From positions 124,001-188,000 of the forward strand of contig CP024912.1 of the NCBI GenBank assembly GCA_002813895.1: a DNA stretch of 64,000 nucleotides. Direction: 5' to 3'. Numbering within the stretch: the stretch's first letter is position 1; every line of letters starts with the position of its first letter. Of this stretch, positions 58,497 through 64,000 are shown one piece after another. The stretch is from Cyanobacterium sp. HL-69. Its GTDB lineage: Bacteria; Cyanobacteriota; Cyanobacteriia; Cyanobacteriales; Cyanobacteriaceae. The notes below the pieces were generated by a model. That model was given only the letters and a program-made list of their open reading frames with translations, was not told where the DNA came from and ran no database searches. Position numbers and translations under genes: made by a program.

Positions 58497-58705
58497 ATTT
58501 TCCTGATTTCCTATGGTTGAGTTAAGAGCCTTTACAAAAGGAAAGTCCTTTCCTAAAGTAGTATATGTATAATCTTAGCTTTACCAAAGTTTTGAGGGTA
58601 TATTCCATCATGAAGACATTTATTGCGATGCCCTCATCAATGGCTTGAAACCCAAATTTTTGGTAAAAGATGGTTTCTTTATCTTATCAATTTATCAAAA
58701 AAAAT

Positions 58706-59054
58706 ATGGCGATCGCAACTTTGATCAAAAGTATCCAAGACATTATGCGCAAAGATGTGGGGGTTGACGGCGACGCGCAGCGCATTAGTCAATTAGTATG
58801 GATGCTATTTTTAAAAATATTTGATGATAAAGAACAAGAATGGGAATTTACCATAGACCATTACCAATCCCCATTACCAGAGCGTTTTCGTTGGTCATCT
58901 TGGGCAAAAAATGACGAAGGCATCACAGGTGATGAGTTAATCGATTTTGTCAATAACGAGTTATTTCCTACCCTCAAAGCATTGGCCACCGCTTCGGGAG
59001 TTTCTGAGCAGGGCCGGGTAATCGGTTCGGTGTTTGAAGATGCCTATAACTATA
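58706..59054 (+). pseudogene. hsdM: hsdM 5' fragment (interrupted)
   Basis: N-terminal part (about 116 residues) of a type I restriction-modification methyltransferase. IQDIMRKDVGVDGDAQRISQLVWMLFLKIFDDKEQEWE and RFRWSSWAKNDEGITGDELIDFVNNELFPTLK belong to the HsdM N-terminal helical domain. The ATG at 58706 (MAIATLIKS) is preferred over the frame's opening at 58670. Coding sequence stops matching at GSVFEDAYNY, where an IS element begins; its product would end in about 80 IS-derived residues. Confidence 0.92.
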
Positions 59055-59070
59055 GAACCCATTTGGTATC

Positions 59071-59640
59071 TCAGGAAGCAGTGAGTCTTTTTAAAAGTAA
59101 TCGAATAAAACATAAGTTAACTTTTTGGGTGGAGTTGAATAAGGTTCTTTCAAAGTTTTTGACCAAATTTTTACATCTTTCCATCCAAGCATTAGATCTT
59201 TCAATGATCCATCTTGCTTTGACTACCACAAATCCTTTTTTTCCTTCTGATTTTTTTTGTTCAGAAGAGATTTTGCCTGATTTTTCCATACGAATTTTCT
59301 TTCCAATTTGTGGATAAACTTTTTCTAATTCCCTCATGATAAAATCAGGATGATAACCCGAATCCACGAGGATCGTAATTTTATGAACATTCATGGGTTT
59401 GGCACGAAAATAATCTATGTTCTCACTCAACATCATGATTAATCCTCGATCATCGGAAACACTTGCCTTTGTGCAACAAGTGAAAAAAGGAAATCCCAGA
59501 CTATCCACTGCTAAATGTCTTTTAATACCATTGGTGAGTTTATACCTACAAAATCCTTTACTCTCTACTCCTGCACTACAAGTATTTTGTACTGCTTGAG
59601 AATCAATGATTATTAATCGAGTCCAAGTGGATTTTTTTTT
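59071..59640 (-). CDS. IS5-family transposase, ORF B (catalytic part)
   Basis: Read in the frame entered by -1 slippage on the A9 run at 59640-59632; about 189 residues. DDE elements seen: Asp in LIIIDSQAVQN, Asp in ILVDSGYHPDF, and Glu in RWIIERSNAW. An internal Met could start at 59508, but that would lose the first Asp, so the fused product is the likely active form. It ends 16 bases from the IS end. Confidence 0.9.
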   Translation of the reverse strand, partial: KKKSTWTRLIIIDSQAVQNTCSAGVESKGFCRYKLTNGIKRHLAVDSLGFPFFTCCTKASVSDDRGLIMMLSENIDYFRAKPMNVHKITILVDSGYHPDFIMRELEKVYPQIGKKIRMEKSGKISSEQKKSEGKKGFVVVKARWIIERSNAWMERCKNLVKNFERTLFNSTQKVNLCFIRLLLKRLTAS

Positions 59641-59909
59641 ACTTTTTCCCTTAGTTGCTTATGAAGCTCACACATCACCATTTCAAAGATACCCTCTTTT
59701 TTCCAGTTTTTATAATGCCAGTAAACTGTAGAATAAGGCGGTAAATCCTTGGGTAAATCAGACCAATTACAGCCATTTTTGAGTTGATAAAAAATACCAT
59801 CCCAAATTTGTCTTTTAGACCACTTTGGTGGACAAGTTCGTTTCTTTTTTGGTAACAGAGGTTTGATTACTTCCCATTCTTCATCACTTAGACTGCTAGA
59901 ATATGCCAT
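59613..59909 (-). CDS. IS5-family transposase, ORF A (N-terminal part)
   Basis: A 98-residue DUF4096-type N-terminal domain: SLSDEEWEVIKPLLPKKKR, WDGIFYQLKNGCNWSDLPKDLPPYSTVYWHYKNWKKEG. The frame ends shortly after a run of nine A on the coding strand (GTAAAAAAAAATCC), where a -1 shift would join it to ORF B. Confidence 0.9.
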   Translation of the reverse strand: MAYSSSLSDEEWEVIKPLLPKKKRTCPPKWSKRQIWDGIFYQLKNGCNWSDLPKDLPPYSTVYWHYKNWKKEGIFEMVMCELHKQLREKVKKNPLGLD

Positions 59910-59964
59910 CCTTCTATTTCTCTATGTTTTCATCTCAATATTCTACTAGATACCAAATGGGTTC

Positions 59965-61065
59965 TATATGAAATCGGGTACTTTATTACGTCAAGTCATC
60001 AACACCATCCAAGAAGACTTAGATTTTAACTCCTCAGACGATCGCCACTTATTCAATGACATCTACGAAAAAATCCTTGCGGACTTACAATCAGCGGGGA
60101 ATGCAGGGGAATATTACACCCCCCGTGCTGTGACTCGATTTATGGTGGATATTCTTAACCCTCAGTTGGGGGAAACAATTCTCGATCCTGCCTGTGGTAC
60201 TGGTGGTTTCTTGACCTGCACCATCGATCATTTACAAAAACAAGTCAAAAACCCCGATGATCAAAAAACCATCGAAAATACCATCCAAGGGGTAGAGAAA
60301 AAACCCTTACCCCATATGTTGGCAATGACCAATATCATGTTGCATGGTATTGATATACCTACCAAAATTCGCCACGATAACACCCTCTCTCGTCCTCTCA
60401 GGGATTATACAACCGAAGATAAGGTGGATATCATCCTCACTAATCCGCCCTTTGGAGGGGTAGAAGAAGACGGCATCGAGAACAATTTTCCCAAGAAATA
60501 CCAAACCAGAGAAACCGCCGATTTATTTATGGCGTTGATTATGCACCTATTAAAAAAAGATACGGGGCGAGGTGCGATCGTTTTGCCAGACGGGTTTTTA
60601 TTTGGGGAAGGGGTGAAAACAGCTATCAAACAAGAACTTTTAACCAATTTTAATCTCCATACCATCATCCGTTTACCCAAGGGGGTATTTAGTCCTTATA
60701 CCAGCATTTCTACCAACATTTTATTTTTTGATCGCACCCAACCCACCGAAAAAATTTGGTTTTTTGAACATCCCTATCCTCAAGGTTATAAATCCTATTC
60801 TCGCTCAAAACCCCTGACCATTAAAGAATTTGACAGGGAAAAGGCATGGTGGCAGAAACGGGAAGAAAACGAATTTGCTTGGGCGGTATCTGTGGAGGAA
60901 ATTATCGCTAAAAATTATAATCTTGATTCTAAAAATCCTTATCAAGAGTCTATTAATCATGGTAAACCCGAAGATTTGATGGAAGAATTTACCCAGTTAT
61001 CCCAACAGGTTAAAAAAATTCAGGATGAGTTAAAAACAGAATTAACAGAATCTTTAAAAAATTAA
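59965..61065 (+). pseudogene. hsdM: hsdM 3' fragment with methyltransferase motifs
   Basis: About 365 residues resuming exactly where the 5' fragment stops (MKSGTLLRQVINTIQED). SAM motif DPACGTGGFL and catalytic NPPFGGVEED are intact, as is PDGFLFGEGVKTAIKQELL. An ATG happens to lie at the junction (59968), so this piece could be translated alone. It would lack the N-terminal domain needed for HsdS contact and target recognition. Together with the 5' part the gene would encode about 480 residues. Confidence 0.92.
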
Positions 61066-61228: not shown

Positions 61229-61276
61229 GTTCAATTTATTGAACGGTATCTATTAGACGTGTAATTCATTACACGT
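61229..61276. repeat. REP-like palindrome pair, A then B
   Basis: Palindrome A, GTTCAATTTATTGAAC (61229-61244), then B, ACGTGTAATTCATTACACGT (61257-61276); centres 30 bp apart. Both share the core AAT-NN-ATT. The order is reversed relative to the copies at 63240 and 63780. Confidence 0.85.
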
Positions 61277-61304
61277 TGAGATAATGGTTATGAATCCTCA
61301 TCTC

Positions 61305-61354
61305 GCTTTGCAATAAATTGACAAAGCTAACAGTTTTAGTTCAATGAATTGAAC
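61305..61354. repeat. REP-like palindrome pair, degenerate B then A
   Basis: A decayed B-type dyad, GCTTTG...CAAAGC around CAATAAATTG (61305-61327), then A, GTTCAATGAATTGAAC (61339-61354); centres 31 bp apart. It faces the preceding pair, making an inverted double unit. Confidence 0.75.
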
Positions 61355-61473
61355 TTACGAAATACAATTTTACCCCGACTTTGAAAAACCTTGTTTACTA
61401 AAGGGGGGAAAAGACAATGGGTGAAGGTCTGGTATAGTTACAGAATCAATCGTTATGGGGTACAAAAATTTCT

Positions 61474-63192
61474 ATGACAATCTCTAAAAGTAAAACTGCC
61501 ACGATCAAACTTTTAGATCAATATTTTACTACCGCTTTTTCTGCACCCGAAGGGATACCCAAGTTACGGGAGTTGATTCTTTCTTTGGCAATGCGAGGGC
61601 AACTTGTACCCCAAAACCCTGATGATATACCTGCACGGGATTTGTTAAAGGACATTGAAACGGAAAAACAACGGTTAATTGATGAGAAAAAGCTCAAAAA
61701 ATCAAAACCCCTCCCAGAAATTACCGCTGATGAAATTCCCTATGATATTCCTGATAGTTGGCAGTGGGTGAGACTGGGAGATATTTTTCAACTAAAAAGT
61801 GGGTATTCTTTTTCCAAACAAGATGAGATTGAAACTGGAGATTTTATATATTTAAAAGTAGGAGAAATGAACTTAGTTGAAAATGAGATTTATATTAAAA
61901 CATCGTCAATTTATTTAAAGGAATCAGAAAAAGTCTTAAGTTCATTAATTCCAGCTAACAGTATCATATTTCCAAAAAGAGGAGGGGCTATTGCAACAAA
62001 TAAAAAACGTTTAGTAACTCAGCCTATTTGCGTTGATACAAATATCATGTCAATGATTTGTCCTCGTCTAATAGATTTACAATTTGCTTATCATTGGATT
62101 TTGTCAATAGATCTTGCTAGATTAAATTCAGGAACAAGTGTTCCACAAATCAATAATAAAGATCTCAATCCACTACTATTCCCCTTACCTCCATTAGAAG
62201 AACAAGAGAGAATAGTAGAGAAAATAGAGACATTGATGGAAAAGTGCGATCGCCTCGAAAAACTCCATCAAGAAAAAGAAGCAAAAAGATTAAAAATCCA
62301 AATAGCAGTAGGTGACAAACTCTTAAAGGCAACTGATAAAAAGGGTTTTGATGATGCTTGGCAATTTATGCGAGACAACTTCGAGACAATTTACAGCGTC
62401 AAAGAAAACGTTAAACAATTACGGCAAATCATTCTACAATTAGCCGTCATGGGTAAATTAGCGCCCCAAGATGACAATGATAAACCCGCCCAACAATTAT
62501 TAAAAGACATTGAAGCCGAAAAGCAACAGTTAATCAAGGAAGGAAAGATTAAAAAGCAAAAACCCTTACCAGAAATTACTCCTGATGAAATTCCCTATGA
62601 TATTCCCGATAGTTGGGAGTGGGTGAGATTAGGTGATTCTATGCTCAAAGTTACTGATGGTACTCATAAGTCACCCATTAATATTCAAAAAGGTGATTTT
62701 TTATATATTTCAGCAAAAAACATTAAAAATGAGGGAATATCATTAGATAATGTGACATACGTTACCAAAGAAATTCATGAAACAATTTATTCCCGATGTA
62801 ATCCAGAATTTGGAGATATTTTATATATAAAAGATGGTGCAACTACTGGGATAGCGACTATAAATAATTTAAAAGAGCAATTTTCAATGTTGTCTAGTGT
62901 CGCATTAATTAAACAGCCGAGACAAATTTATAATAAGTTTTTATTACTTAGTTTAAAGTCACCTTTTTTTTATAAAGAAATACGAGCAGATATGTCAGGA
63001 GTCGCTATTACTCGTGTGACATTAAAAAAAATAAAAGCTTTCATTGTTCCTTTACCACCATTAGAAGAACAAAGGAGAATAGTAGAAAAAGTAGATAAAA
63101 TGATGAAACTATGTGATGAATTAGAGGAAAAAATAACCAACCAAACAGAAAAACAAACCAGCCTTTTAAACGCCCTTATTGCTCAAATTTAA
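61474..63192 (+). CDS. hsdS: Type I restriction-modification specificity subunit
   Basis: A 572-residue protein that sets the DNA sequence read by a type I enzyme. Two target-recognition domains (about 105-250 and 390-535) each end in a conserved coiled-coil segment: FPLPPLEEQERIVEKIETLMEKCDRLE and VPLPPLEEQRRIVEKVDKMMKLCDELE. Each is preceded by a repeated lead-in, EIPYDIPDSWQWVRLGD and EIPYDIPDSWEWVRLGD, 285 codons apart with nearly identical DNA (61732 and 62587). The frame is intact although hsdM is disrupted. hsdR is not in the window. Confidence 0.94.
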   Translation: MTISKSKTATIKLLDQYFTTAFSAPEGIPKLRELILSLAMRGQLVPQNPDDIPARDLLKDIETEKQRLIDEKKLKKSKPLPEITADEIPYDIPDSWQWVRLGDIFQLKSGYSFSKQDEIETGDFIYLKVGEMNLVENEIYIKTSSIYLKESEKVLSSLIPANSIIFPKRGGAIATNKKRLVTQPICVDTNIMSMICPRLIDLQFAYHWILSIDLARLNSGTSVPQINNKDLNPLLFPLPPLEEQERIVEKIETLMEKCDRLEKLHQEKEAKRLKIQIAVGDKLLKATDKKGFDDAWQFMRDNFETIYSVKENVKQLRQIILQLAVMGKLAPQDDNDKPAQQLLKDIEAEKQQLIKEGKIKKQKPLPEITPDEIPYDIPDSWEWVRLGDSMLKVTDGTHKSPINIQKGDFLYISAKNIKNEGISLDNVTYVTKEIHETIYSRCNPEFGDILYIKDGATTGIATINNLKEQFSMLSSVALIKQPRQIYNKFLLLSLKSPFFYKEIRADMSGVAITRVTLKKIKAFIVPLPPLEEQRRIVEKVDKMMKLCDELEEKITNQTEKQTSLLNALIAQI

Positions 63193-63239
63193 GGTTAATT
63201 TTTGTTTTATTAAGAAGGTTTAAGGGTGATTTTATCCCA

Positions 63240-63288
63240 CCGTGTAATAAATTACACGGCTAATAGAATTACGTTCAATGAATTGAAC
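63240..63288. repeat. REP-like palindrome pair, B then A
   Basis: B, CCGTGTAATAAATTACACGG (63240-63259), then A, GTTCAATGAATTGAAC (63273-63288); perfect or near-perfect dyads, centres 31 bp apart. The intervening sequence CTAATAGAATTAC closely resembles that of the 63780 copy. Confidence 0.9.
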
Positions 63289-63313
63289 TAAGATGTTATT
63301 TTTTAAGGTTAAG

Positions 63314-63757
63314 TTTATTGTATGGCGATATTAGGAGATAATCATTTAATATTTGCATGGGGTTAAGGGCGCTGGTTTTTACGATGATTAATGATGAAAA
63401 AGTTTAATTTATTAAACGAAATTGCGGTAGCCGTGAAATTTATTGCATGGGGATATTAGGAGATAATCATTTAATATTTGTATGGGGTTAAGGGCGCTGG
63501 TTTTTAGGATGATTAATGATGAGCAAGTTTAATTTATTAAACGAAATTGCGATAGCCGTGAAATTTATTGCACGGCGATATTAAGGGTTAATCATTTAAT
63601 ATTTGTATGGGGTTAAGGGCGCTGGTTTTTAGGATGATTAATGATGAGCAAGTTTAATTTATTAAACGAAATTGCGGTAGCCGTGAAATTTATTGTACGG
63701 CGATATTAAGGGATAATCATTTAATATTTGTATGGGGTTAAGGGCGCTGGGTTTTTT
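63314..63757. repeat. 125-bp tandem repeat, about 3.5 copies
   Basis: The word TTAAGGGCGCTGG recurs at 63363, 63488, 63613 and 63738, exactly 125 bp apart, and surrounding sequence aligns with few changes. Each unit contains GTTTAATTTATTAAAC (63402, 63527, 63652) followed, 31 bp centre to centre, by a CCGTGAAATTTATTGCACGG-type dyad (63431, 63556, 63681). These are diverged A and B palindromes in A-B order. Confidence 0.93.
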
Positions 63758-63779
63758 ACAGTTTTATAGCATTTTCCCA

Positions 63780-63828
63780 CCGTGTAATGAATTACACGGC
63801 TAATAAGATTACGTTCAATGAATTGAAC
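63780..63828. repeat. REP-like palindrome pair, B then A, beside the transposase
   Basis: B, CCGTGTAATGAATTACACGG (63780-63799), and A, GTTCAATGAATTGAAC (63813-63828), both perfect dyads apart from the central two bases, centres 31 bp apart. It ends 13 bases from the stop codon of the Y1 transposase gene. Confidence 0.9.
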
Positions 63829-63841
63829 TAAGATATTATTC

Positions 63842-64000
63842 TTAAGGGCTAAATTTTTCTAATTCAGTAATGGTAGTTTTATTTTGATGATGCTGTTTTT
63901 GATTTTTTACATAGTTAATAGCAATGGGTAAATTTTGAACTCCGACGCTAAATATCCCATAACCATCTTGCCAATAAAAGCTGTTATTGTAATTTTTACC
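63842..64000 (-). CDS. Y1 transposase (IS200/REP-associated type), C-terminal part
   Basis: The last 52 codons of a gene running off the window. FYWQDGYGIFSVGVQNLPIAINYVKNQKQHHQNKTTITEL matches the C-terminal signature of Y1 HUH transposases (W-Q-x-GYG-x-FSV ... Y-I/V-x-NQ-x-x-HH). The tyrosine in INYVKNQ is the probable nucleophile. Such proteins cut single-stranded DNA at hairpins in IS200/IS605 elements or mobilise REP palindromes (RAYTs). The HUH motif lies beyond the window, so the subclass cannot be decided here. Confidence 0.88.
   Translation of the reverse strand, partial: GKNYNNSFYWQDGYGIFSVGVQNLPIAINYVKNQKQHHQNKTTITELEKFSP

What the first reader, a model, noticed from the sequence alone, without database searches (positions are those of the whole stretch)
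61229..64000. Palindrome-pair family around hsdS next to a Y1 transposase: a candidate cyanobacterial REP/RAYT system
Four palindrome pairs plus three degenerate pairs in a tandem array lie within 2.6 kb. Each pair has one A dyad (GTTCAATGAATTGAAC type) and one B dyad (CCGTGTAATGAATTACACGG type), with centres 30-31 bp apart, in either orientation. The two pairs at 61229-61354 face each other, as in REPINs. The final pair abuts a gene with the C-terminal Y1 signature. Y1 proteins are known to act on hairpins and REP doublets. That this enzyme mobilises these pairs, and that they are an unnamed family, is inference. The 31-bp spacing (about three helical turns) could also suit a dimeric DNA-binding protein.
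Basis: partly seen in the sequence, partly recalled or inferred. Interest (0 to 1): 0.8.

Follow-up and report, generated by a model that had tools for sequence, protein, structure and literature searches.

The report
Paired-hairpin repeats with a Y1 transposase
Pairs of small DNA hairpins scattered through cyanobacterial genomes sit next to one particular, usually single-copy, IS200-like enzyme gene at nearly all the loci examined, which suggests a REP-type mobile repeat system built on an enzyme group reported to have no such repeats.

Summary
Four A/B palindrome pairs and three degenerate ones lie at 61229-63828, centres 30-31 bp apart, beside a Y1 transposase gene (complete: 133 aa, window 63842 to 64243). 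The pairs are dispersed in this genome (21-22 copies) and were found in 189 of 291 sampled genomes of the order.

The enzyme is not a classical RAYT. It fits TnpA-Y1 'subclass 1.2', an IS200-related, low-copy group printed as having no REPs. Pairs flank it nonetheless: a covariance model finds them at 33 of 35 and at 75 of 80 orthologue loci (overlapping sets), and at 0 of 62 loci of other Y1 genes. A model-free finder gives 73 of 80, against 0 of 30 RAYT-profile and 0 of 10 IS200-like loci. A related group with the same catalytic motif carries the same two-hairpin layout, mostly with GTAG instead of TTAG at the foot (11 of 22 loci). Presence/absence of pairs at orthologous sites supports past mobility.

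Against strict dependence: 128 of 230 genomes without a detected gene still have pairs, some many, and many copies ride inside TIR-flanked MITE-like elements.

Best reading: a REP/RAYT-like system with bipartite REPs and a class-1 enzyme. Mobilisation by the enzyme is inferred, not shown.

The parts
61229..61275 (+). Pair 1, A then B (A 61229-61244, B 61258-61275), centres 30 bp apart
61305..61354 (-). Pair 2, inverted to pair 1; B 61305-61327 (bulged, different stem), A 61339-61354
63240..63288 (-). Pair 3 (B 63240-63259, A 63273-63288), centres 31 bp apart
63401..63450 (+). Degenerate array unit 1 (A GTTTAAT..ATTAAAC, GTAG foot, B)
63526..63575 (+). Degenerate array unit 2 (foot ATAG)
63651..63700 (+). 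Degenerate array unit 3 (GTAG foot)
63780..63828 (-). Pair 4, ends 13 bp before the Y1 stop codon, A nearest the gene (B 63780-63799, A 63813-63828)
63842..64000 (-). 3' part of the Y1 (HUH) transposase gene; complete gene 133 aa, to window position 64243 (genome C1:187842-188243). Motifs DHIH, WQ, YVKNQKQHH

Best explanation
The pairs are bipartite REP-like elements of about 58 nt: hairpin A, a short linker, a foot that is mostly TTAG (or TGAG, TAAG, TCAG), hairpin B, then often GGG. They are the substrates of a usually single-copy, domesticated Y1 HUH nuclease of the IS200-related 'subclass 1.2'. The enzyme is inferred to bind the folded hairpins on single-stranded DNA, use the foot as a guide, and cut and rejoin copies into new intergenic sites, singly or as inverted dimers, as RAYTs are thought to do with REPs. 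Shown here: architecture, covariation in the stems, specific gene-repeat adjacency, low copy number of the gene, and presence/absence polymorphism. Inferred: binding, cleavage and mobilisation.
For: Adjacency: R2 finds pairs within 1.5 kb of 33 of 35 orthologue loci (none at L030, L109) and at 75 of 80 protein-selected named loci (71 in the listed rows, 4 more full-length; L276 shows a B half only). The two sets share some genomes. Other Y1 loci: 0 of 12, 0 of 30 RAYT-profile loci, 22 of them over the profile's cut-off, 0 of 20 further beta-group loci; these 62 loci are 61 genes, since L324 and L043 are the same, and some are cut by contig ends. Model-free finder: orthologues 73 of 80, beta group 11 of 22 (GTAG foot at 8), RAYT-profile 0 of 30, IS200-like 0 of 10, shuffled 0. 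Covariation without choosing by palindrome: at 102 distinct TATTAGC sites in protein-selected loci, pairing is 0.53 (B) and 0.55 (A) in register against 0.19-0.32 slid, with several Watson-Crick types at inner positions. Enzyme signature fits subclass 1.2 (against the table of PMC6006769, passages). 56 of 61 gene-bearing genomes list a single match of this group (G016 adds a fragment). All 61 have pairs. Polymorphism in genus g74, by R2 and alignment: pair absent in 9 of 10 relatives at site L161, 7 of 7 at L157, 7 of 8 at L169; at L173 three relatives have one pair where G234 has an inverted dimer. 10 of 10 dispersed G000 sites are intergenic by ORFs of at least 100 aa, one of them an A dyad only.
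Against: 128 of 230 genomes without a detected orthologue still have R2 matches, and G002, G011 and G036 have many with no close orthologue. The co-occurrence test is not corrected for phylogeny, and genomes with only a beta-group gene are also rich in pairs of the R2 type (21 of 23), although R2 finds none beside the beta genes themselves. In the window's genus many copies lie in TIR-flanked elements: of 38 copies 12 show both ends, 19 one, 7 none, allowing two mismatches and without a chance control, so another transposase may have spread them. A stem-level cognate test was weak: own genome best in 3 of 13 (the dispersed copies used were mostly top model scores, a bias). Direction (gain or loss) at the polymorphic sites is unknown, and several other alleles hold other short repeats.
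Confidence: 0.68

Rival explanations
1. The pairs are passengers of TIR elements (MITEs) moved by a DDE transposase; the Y1 gene is a bystander or an independent user of the hairpins.
For: In G000 three copies (L011, L013, L014) share a whole element with ATACCAAATCCG ends. In G002 and G004 31 of 38 copies show one or both ends of a TIR (loose matching). In genus g74 many dimers sit inside a GTAGGGGTTTAGCA..GGTGTCAACTTAA TIR element. G002 has at least 126 pairs and no detected orthologue.
Against: Three different TIR sequences surround the same kind of pair. Some copies show no TIR (7 of 38; several). One member of a dimer is gained or lost at site L173 without a TIR. The TIR account does not explain why pairs flank 75 of 80 orthologues of one Y1 group and none of 62 other Y1 loci.
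Confidence: 0.15
2. The Y1 gene is an ordinary IS200-like insertion sequence that prefers to land beside hairpins, so the adjacency reflects target choice.
For: Sequence and tree place it on the IS200 side. In G000 and G004 it sits inside an array of pairs.
Against: A single match in 56 of 61 genomes, unlike subclass 1.1 (mean 4.8 copies, 99.4% identity; PMC6006769 table). IS200-like loci of the same order show no pairs (0 of 10). The beta group carries its own GTAG variant, which suits a cognate enzyme better than a shared target.
Confidence: 0.09
3. The pair is an operator or an RNA element (terminator, mRNA stabiliser, site for a dimeric DNA-binding protein) with no mobile role.
For: Intergenic placement, strong hairpins, and a fixed spacing near three helical turns.
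Against: Stem sequences vary with compensation while the foot and the stem ends stay, unlike an operator. Presence varies between species at orthologous sites. Adjacency is specific to one enzyme group. A later host use is not excluded.
Confidence: 0.06

Closest known systems
REP/RAYT systems (REPINs, BIMEs, REPtrons; PMC2817692, PMC3116915, PMC3733652)
   Same: Short intergenic hairpins in tens to hundreds of copies, inverted dimers, tetranucleotide foot 5' of the hairpin, adjacency to a low-copy Y1 gene.
   Different: Two hairpins per unit at fixed 30-31 nt spacing; foot mostly TTAG rather than GTAG beside this enzyme; the enzyme is class 1 (IS200 side), not class 2.
TnpA-Y1 subclass 1.2 (PMC6006769)
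   Same: DH[IV]H, WQ and Y---Q--HH motifs, short protein, low copy number, mainly Cyanobacteria.
   Different: That paper lists 'no' REP for the subclass; here 73 of 80 loci of one clade and 11 of 22 of a related group carry bipartite hairpins.
Cyanobacterial GTAG-12/-15/-16 REPs (PMC3733652)
   Same: GTAG-tagged hairpins in filamentous and unicellular cyanobacteria; some dimers lie inside longer palindromes.
   Different: In the passages seen they are described as tagged hairpins, without a second hairpin per unit. The beta-group GTAG elements seen here have a second hairpin 8 nt upstream of the foot. Whether these are the same families could not be checked (figure not held).
IS200/IS605 insertion sequences (IS608, ISDra2)
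   Same: Same enzyme superfamily (phmmer to IS608 TnpA 1.5e-11); hairpins with guide tetranucleotides.
   Different: No multi-copy autonomous element; usually one gene copy.
TIR-bearing MITEs of cyanobacteria (such as Nezha)
   Same: Many pairs lie inside short TIR elements.
   Different: TIRs differ between lineages while the pair stays; copies without visible TIRs also occur.

Membership tests
REP/RAYT system | Dispersed short palindromic repeats, intergenic, many copies | tested here: met
   21-22 in G000; 123, 131 and 134 of 150 scored candidates in three g74 genomes; 10 of 10 dispersed G000 sites intergenic
REP/RAYT system | Repeats flank a low-copy Y1 gene | tested here: met
REP/RAYT system | GTAG/GTGG foot at the hairpin | tested here: not met
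   Foot mostly TTAG, TGAG, TAAG or TCAG beside this enzyme; GTAG in 5 elements at 2 of 80 loci, in array copies of G000 and G004, and in the beta group
REP/RAYT system | Enzyme belongs to the REP-associated (class 2) transposases | tested here: not met
   NF047646 30.5 bits, cutoff 80; trees split class 2, with E. coli RayT, from this side at 100/99 and 100/100
REP/RAYT system | Enzyme cuts or recombines the repeat | not testable with these tools
   needs biochemistry
TnpA-Y1 subclass 1.2 | DH[IV]H, WQ, Y---Q--HH motifs | tested here: met
   DHIH, WQDGYG, YVKNQKQHH, 133 aa
TnpA-Y1 subclass 1.2 | Low intragenomic copy number | tested here: met
   single match in 56 of 61 genomes
TnpA-Y1 subclass 1.2 | No REP reported for the subclass | tested here: not met
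   pairs at 73 of 80 loci and at 11 of 22 beta-group loci; this would revise the published description rather than exclude membership
IS200/IS605 insertion sequence | Multiple near-identical copies with fixed ends | tested here: not met
IS200/IS605 insertion sequence | IS200-type TnpA profile | tested here: met
   NF033573 85 bits, cutoff 55; Pfam Y1_Tnp 103 bits, cutoff 23
TIR MITE | Terminal inverted repeats around the unit | tested here: inconclusive
   present for many copies, not seen for others

The most novel reading that the evidence does not exclude
Each A-B pair is a complete minimal single-strand transposon of about 58 nt. Hairpin A acts as the left-end and hairpin B as the right-end recognition structure, each with its own guide tetranucleotide, and the subclass 1.2 enzyme excises and inserts the pair as a unit. 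TTAG is the commonest tetranucleotide at the base of both hairpins, though at A it includes the first two stem bases, so that half of the evidence is weak. Two enzyme groups would have diverged in their guide code, TTAG against GTAG. This would be an REP-type system that arose on the IS200 branch, separately from class-2 RAYTs.
Probability: 0.3. Interest if true: 0.85.

Novelty: new variant of a known kind. Interest (0 to 1): 0.68.

Why it matters
It gives an orphan enzyme group a candidate substrate, suggests that REP-type domestication of Y1 transposases happened more than once, and characterises a repeat found in 189 of 291 sampled genomes of one cyanobacterial order. Two related enzyme groups with different feet (TTAG and GTAG) offer a natural test of the guide model of single-strand transposition.

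Tried and rejected
Rfam on the locus at E up to 1: one weak hit, a Dictyostelium snoRNA at 29 bits (gathering 70), taken as chance. A stem-level cognate test between gene-flanking and dispersed pairs gave own 0.755 against other 0.707, permutation p 0.01, own best in 3 of 13: weak and biased, not used as support (14 genomes set up, G120 dropped because its gene locus gave no pair by that finder). A strict version of the foot finder saw no GTAG element in the beta group because its B stem is bulged; the relaxed version was used for all groups, with shuffles at zero. In one search the orthologue loci also gave AAAG (69), CAAG (28), GAAG (12) and ATAG (12) feet; 52, 24, 12 and 10 of these overlap a TTAG/TGAG/TAAG/TCAG element on the other strand and are its reverse reading; the rest are unexplained. 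The covariation count on A2 is partly by construction, since rows were chosen by a dyad finder; one search is the independent test. In one search the control set contained L015, which holds the window's own pairs, and TGTTAGC sites showed only weak pairing (0.35). I first took the beta genes for a sister clade; a second tree does not show them as one (two changes, one origin in 30% of bootstrap trees), so I call them a group. All 20 fetched beta genes have the Y---Q--HH motif. No R2 hit at L030, L109, L216, L228 and L277, and only E 0.047 at L287. Clean empty sites: one search gave one contiguous match across joined flanks (G292 at L169, 73% identity); most other alleles hold other short repeats. 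At L161 one relative, G255, carries the dimer. L209 was fetched for site L166 and not used. Literature: searched the open library only. A 2008 paper on very small mobile repeats of cyanobacteria (PMC2527708) is not held, so it may already contain these sequences. PMC6006769, PMC3733652, PMC8266576 and PMC11448079 were read as passages (section 16 of PMC3733652 whole); PMC2817692 and PMC3116915 were seen in listings with the start of their abstracts; what else I say of REP systems, IS608 and ISDra2 is recalled.
Full report
What is there. The window ends in what looks, by its translations, like a type I restriction operon (hsdS confirmed by Pfam). Between hsdS and a downstream hsdR-like gene lie four A/B palindrome pairs, a tandem array of degenerate pairs, and a Y1 gene; pairs 1 and 2 lie just upstream of hsdS. 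A is GTTCAATNNATTGAAC, B mostly CCGTGTAATNNATTACACGG; centres are 30-31 bp apart. Pair 2 has a different, bulged B stem. The array continues on the other side of the gene with two more units. A strict dyad-pair finder sees 21 candidates in the window, 13 beyond 61000, against 4.8 on average in 25 shuffles.

Genome. The exact A dyad occurs at 14 places in the 3.3-Mb genome. A covariance model from 17 units (R1) gives 22 matches, and one from 27 diverse units (R2) gives 21. Nine units lie in about 3.3 kb around the gene (rows). Ten of ten dispersed sites are intergenic, one of them an A dyad without B.

The enzyme. The gene encodes 133 aa. Pfam Y1_Tnp scores 103 bits, NCBIfam IS200 transposase 85 bits (cutoff 55), and the REP-associated transposase family only 30.5 bits (cutoff 80). 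The nearest solved structure by sequence is IS608 TnpA, 1.5e-11. Its motifs, DHIH, WQ and YVKNQKQHH, match subclass 1.2 of PMC6006769 (passages), listed there as low copy and without REPs. In two trees class-2 transposases including E. coli RayT separate at 100/99 and 100/100; the window's clade (here alpha) has 89/89 and 92/88, just under the starred level; the IS200-like genes form one group at 99/100. The related beta genes, which share the Y---Q--HH motif (20 of 20), are not resolved as one clade. The Chloroflexi sequence L287 falls outside alpha.

Adjacency. With an alpha protein as query 61 of 291 genomes have a match I count as alpha (the lowest near-full-length match scores 144 bits and one partial match 132; the best beta match scores 120); five more genomes have fragments only. 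R2 finds pairs near 33 of 35 alpha loci and none of 12 other Y1 loci. A separate scan chosen by protein only gave 80 named loci, some from the same genomes: 71 are in the 300 listed of 340 rows, and four more have weaker full-length hits (L223, L239, L271, L274); L276 shows only the B half, L287 E 0.047, and L216, L228 and L277 none. R2 finds none at 30 RAYT-profile loci, 22 of them over the profile's cut-off, and none at 20 further beta loci. One gene is in two of these sets (L043 and L324). A finder without a model gives alpha 73 of 80, beta 11 of 22, RAYT-profile 0 of 30, IS200-like 0 of 10, and none in shuffles.

Two groups, two feet. In one search alpha loci give TTAG 98, TGAG 66, TAAG 31, TCAG 15 and GTAG 5 (the last at 2 loci); AAAG 69, CAAG 28, GAAG 12 and ATAG 12 are mostly the same elements read on the other strand. 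In the strict version alpha loci give TTAG 58, TGAG 46, TAAG 26, TCAG 10 and none of GTAG, GGAG, CTAG or ATAG. Beta loci give GTAG 14 at 8 loci and eight elements with other feet; the GTAG ones read AGTCC..GGACT or AACCC..GGGTT, 8 nt, GTAG, then CCGCGATTTC..AATCGCCG or close variants. GTAG also occurs in array copies of G000 and G004. So both parts of subclass 1.2 examined appear to have two-hairpin repeats, with the foot as a main difference. Part of the GTAG material may be the published cyanobacterial GTAG families (PMC3733652, passages and section 16), whose figure was not available.

Structure is under selection. To avoid choosing rows by their palindromes, I took the TATTAGC sites in the 80 protein-selected loci: at 102 distinct sites (49 loci) pairing is 0.53 (B) and 0.55 (A) in register and 0.19-0.32 slid, with several Watson-Crick types at inner positions; 30 of the 102 have both stems. 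TGTTAGC sites pair less (0.35). In G234 alone the A arm of the dispersed copies takes at least eight forms, each compensated, while AGT..ACT ends, foot and GGG mostly persist (where rows were required to have an AG-ending foot).

Distribution. R2 matches occur in 189 of 291 sampled genomes, counts being capped at 19 scored candidates. All 61 alpha genomes have pairs, as do 128 of 230 others (Fisher p 1e-13, not corrected for phylogeny). Of 23 genomes with only a beta gene 21 have pairs, of 202 with neither 102. Hence the gene predicts pairs, but pairs do not need the gene now. REPs outliving their RAYT would look the same; so would another mover.

Another mover is plausible for part of the copies. 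In the window's genus the pair often lies in a TATCAAGTCCG element (of 38 copies in G002 and G004, 12 with both ends, 19 with one TIR end of either type, 7 with none, loose matching without a chance control) or an ATACCAAATCCG element, of which three near-identical copies exist in G000. In genus g74 many dimers lie in a third TIR element. The pair is the constant part, the TIRs are not.

Mobility. At orthologous intergenic sites of genus g74 the pair is present in some species and not found in others: not found in 9 of 10 relatives at L161 (G255 has it), 7 of 7 at L157 and 7 of 8 at L169 (G288 has it) (R2; alignments of most of these). At L173, G234 has an inverted dimer and G292, G250 and G293 have one pair. 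At L184 and L176 several species share the spacing of a filled site. Most other alleles contain other short repeats, so exact cut sites and the direction of change are not settled.

Judgement. I read this as a REP/RAYT-like system with bipartite repeats and a class-1 enzyme. It works like a REP system; by the usual tests (enzyme class, GTAG foot) it is not a member of the classical RAYT family. The enzyme's action on the pairs is inferred. What would be new is the link between subclass 1.2 and paired hairpins and the group-specific foot; the searches named listed no paper that I saw to state it, with the caveat that one relevant paper was not held.

Noticed in passing
window 58670-61065: By its translations hsdM appears split: an N-terminal part (58670-59317 frame) and a C-terminal part (59968-61065) are separated by an IS4/5-type DDE transposase on the minus strand, itself in two frames (59071-59508 and 59613-59909).
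   Followed up: no
window 61474-63192 and L015:4151-6535: The pair array and Y1 gene sit between hsdS and a 794-aa hsdR-like helicase gene (by its translation), inside a type I restriction operon.
   Followed up: no
L005, L007, L011, L013, L014 (G000): Pairs inside a MITE-like element with ATACCAAATCCG..CGGATTTGGTAT ends; L010 looks like a related element that keeps the A dyad but has no B dyad.
   Followed up: partly
L325-L364 (G002, G004): Pairs inside a second TIR element, TATCAAGTCCG..CGAACTTGATA, common in the window's genus.
   Followed up: partly
L157-L196 (genus g74): Inverted pair dimers nested in a third TIR element, GTAGGGGTTTAGCA..GGTGTCAACTTAA and its inverse.
   Followed up: partly
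L365-L384, L034, L035: Beta-group Y1 genes carry two-hairpin elements, mostly GTAG-tagged (11 of 22 loci).
   Followed up: yes
L223, L239, L262, L275, L276, L287: Related genes in bins named Desulfamplus, Parabeggiatoa, Marithrix, Desulfobacteraceae and Chloroflexi; four of the six have full-length R2 hits. Transfer or mis-binned contigs.
   Followed up: no
G000:C1:574534-574938 (L312): A RAYT-profile gene (91.7 bits, over the cut-off) with an internal TGA, apparently a relic, in the window's own genome; no R2 pairs near it.
   Followed up: partly
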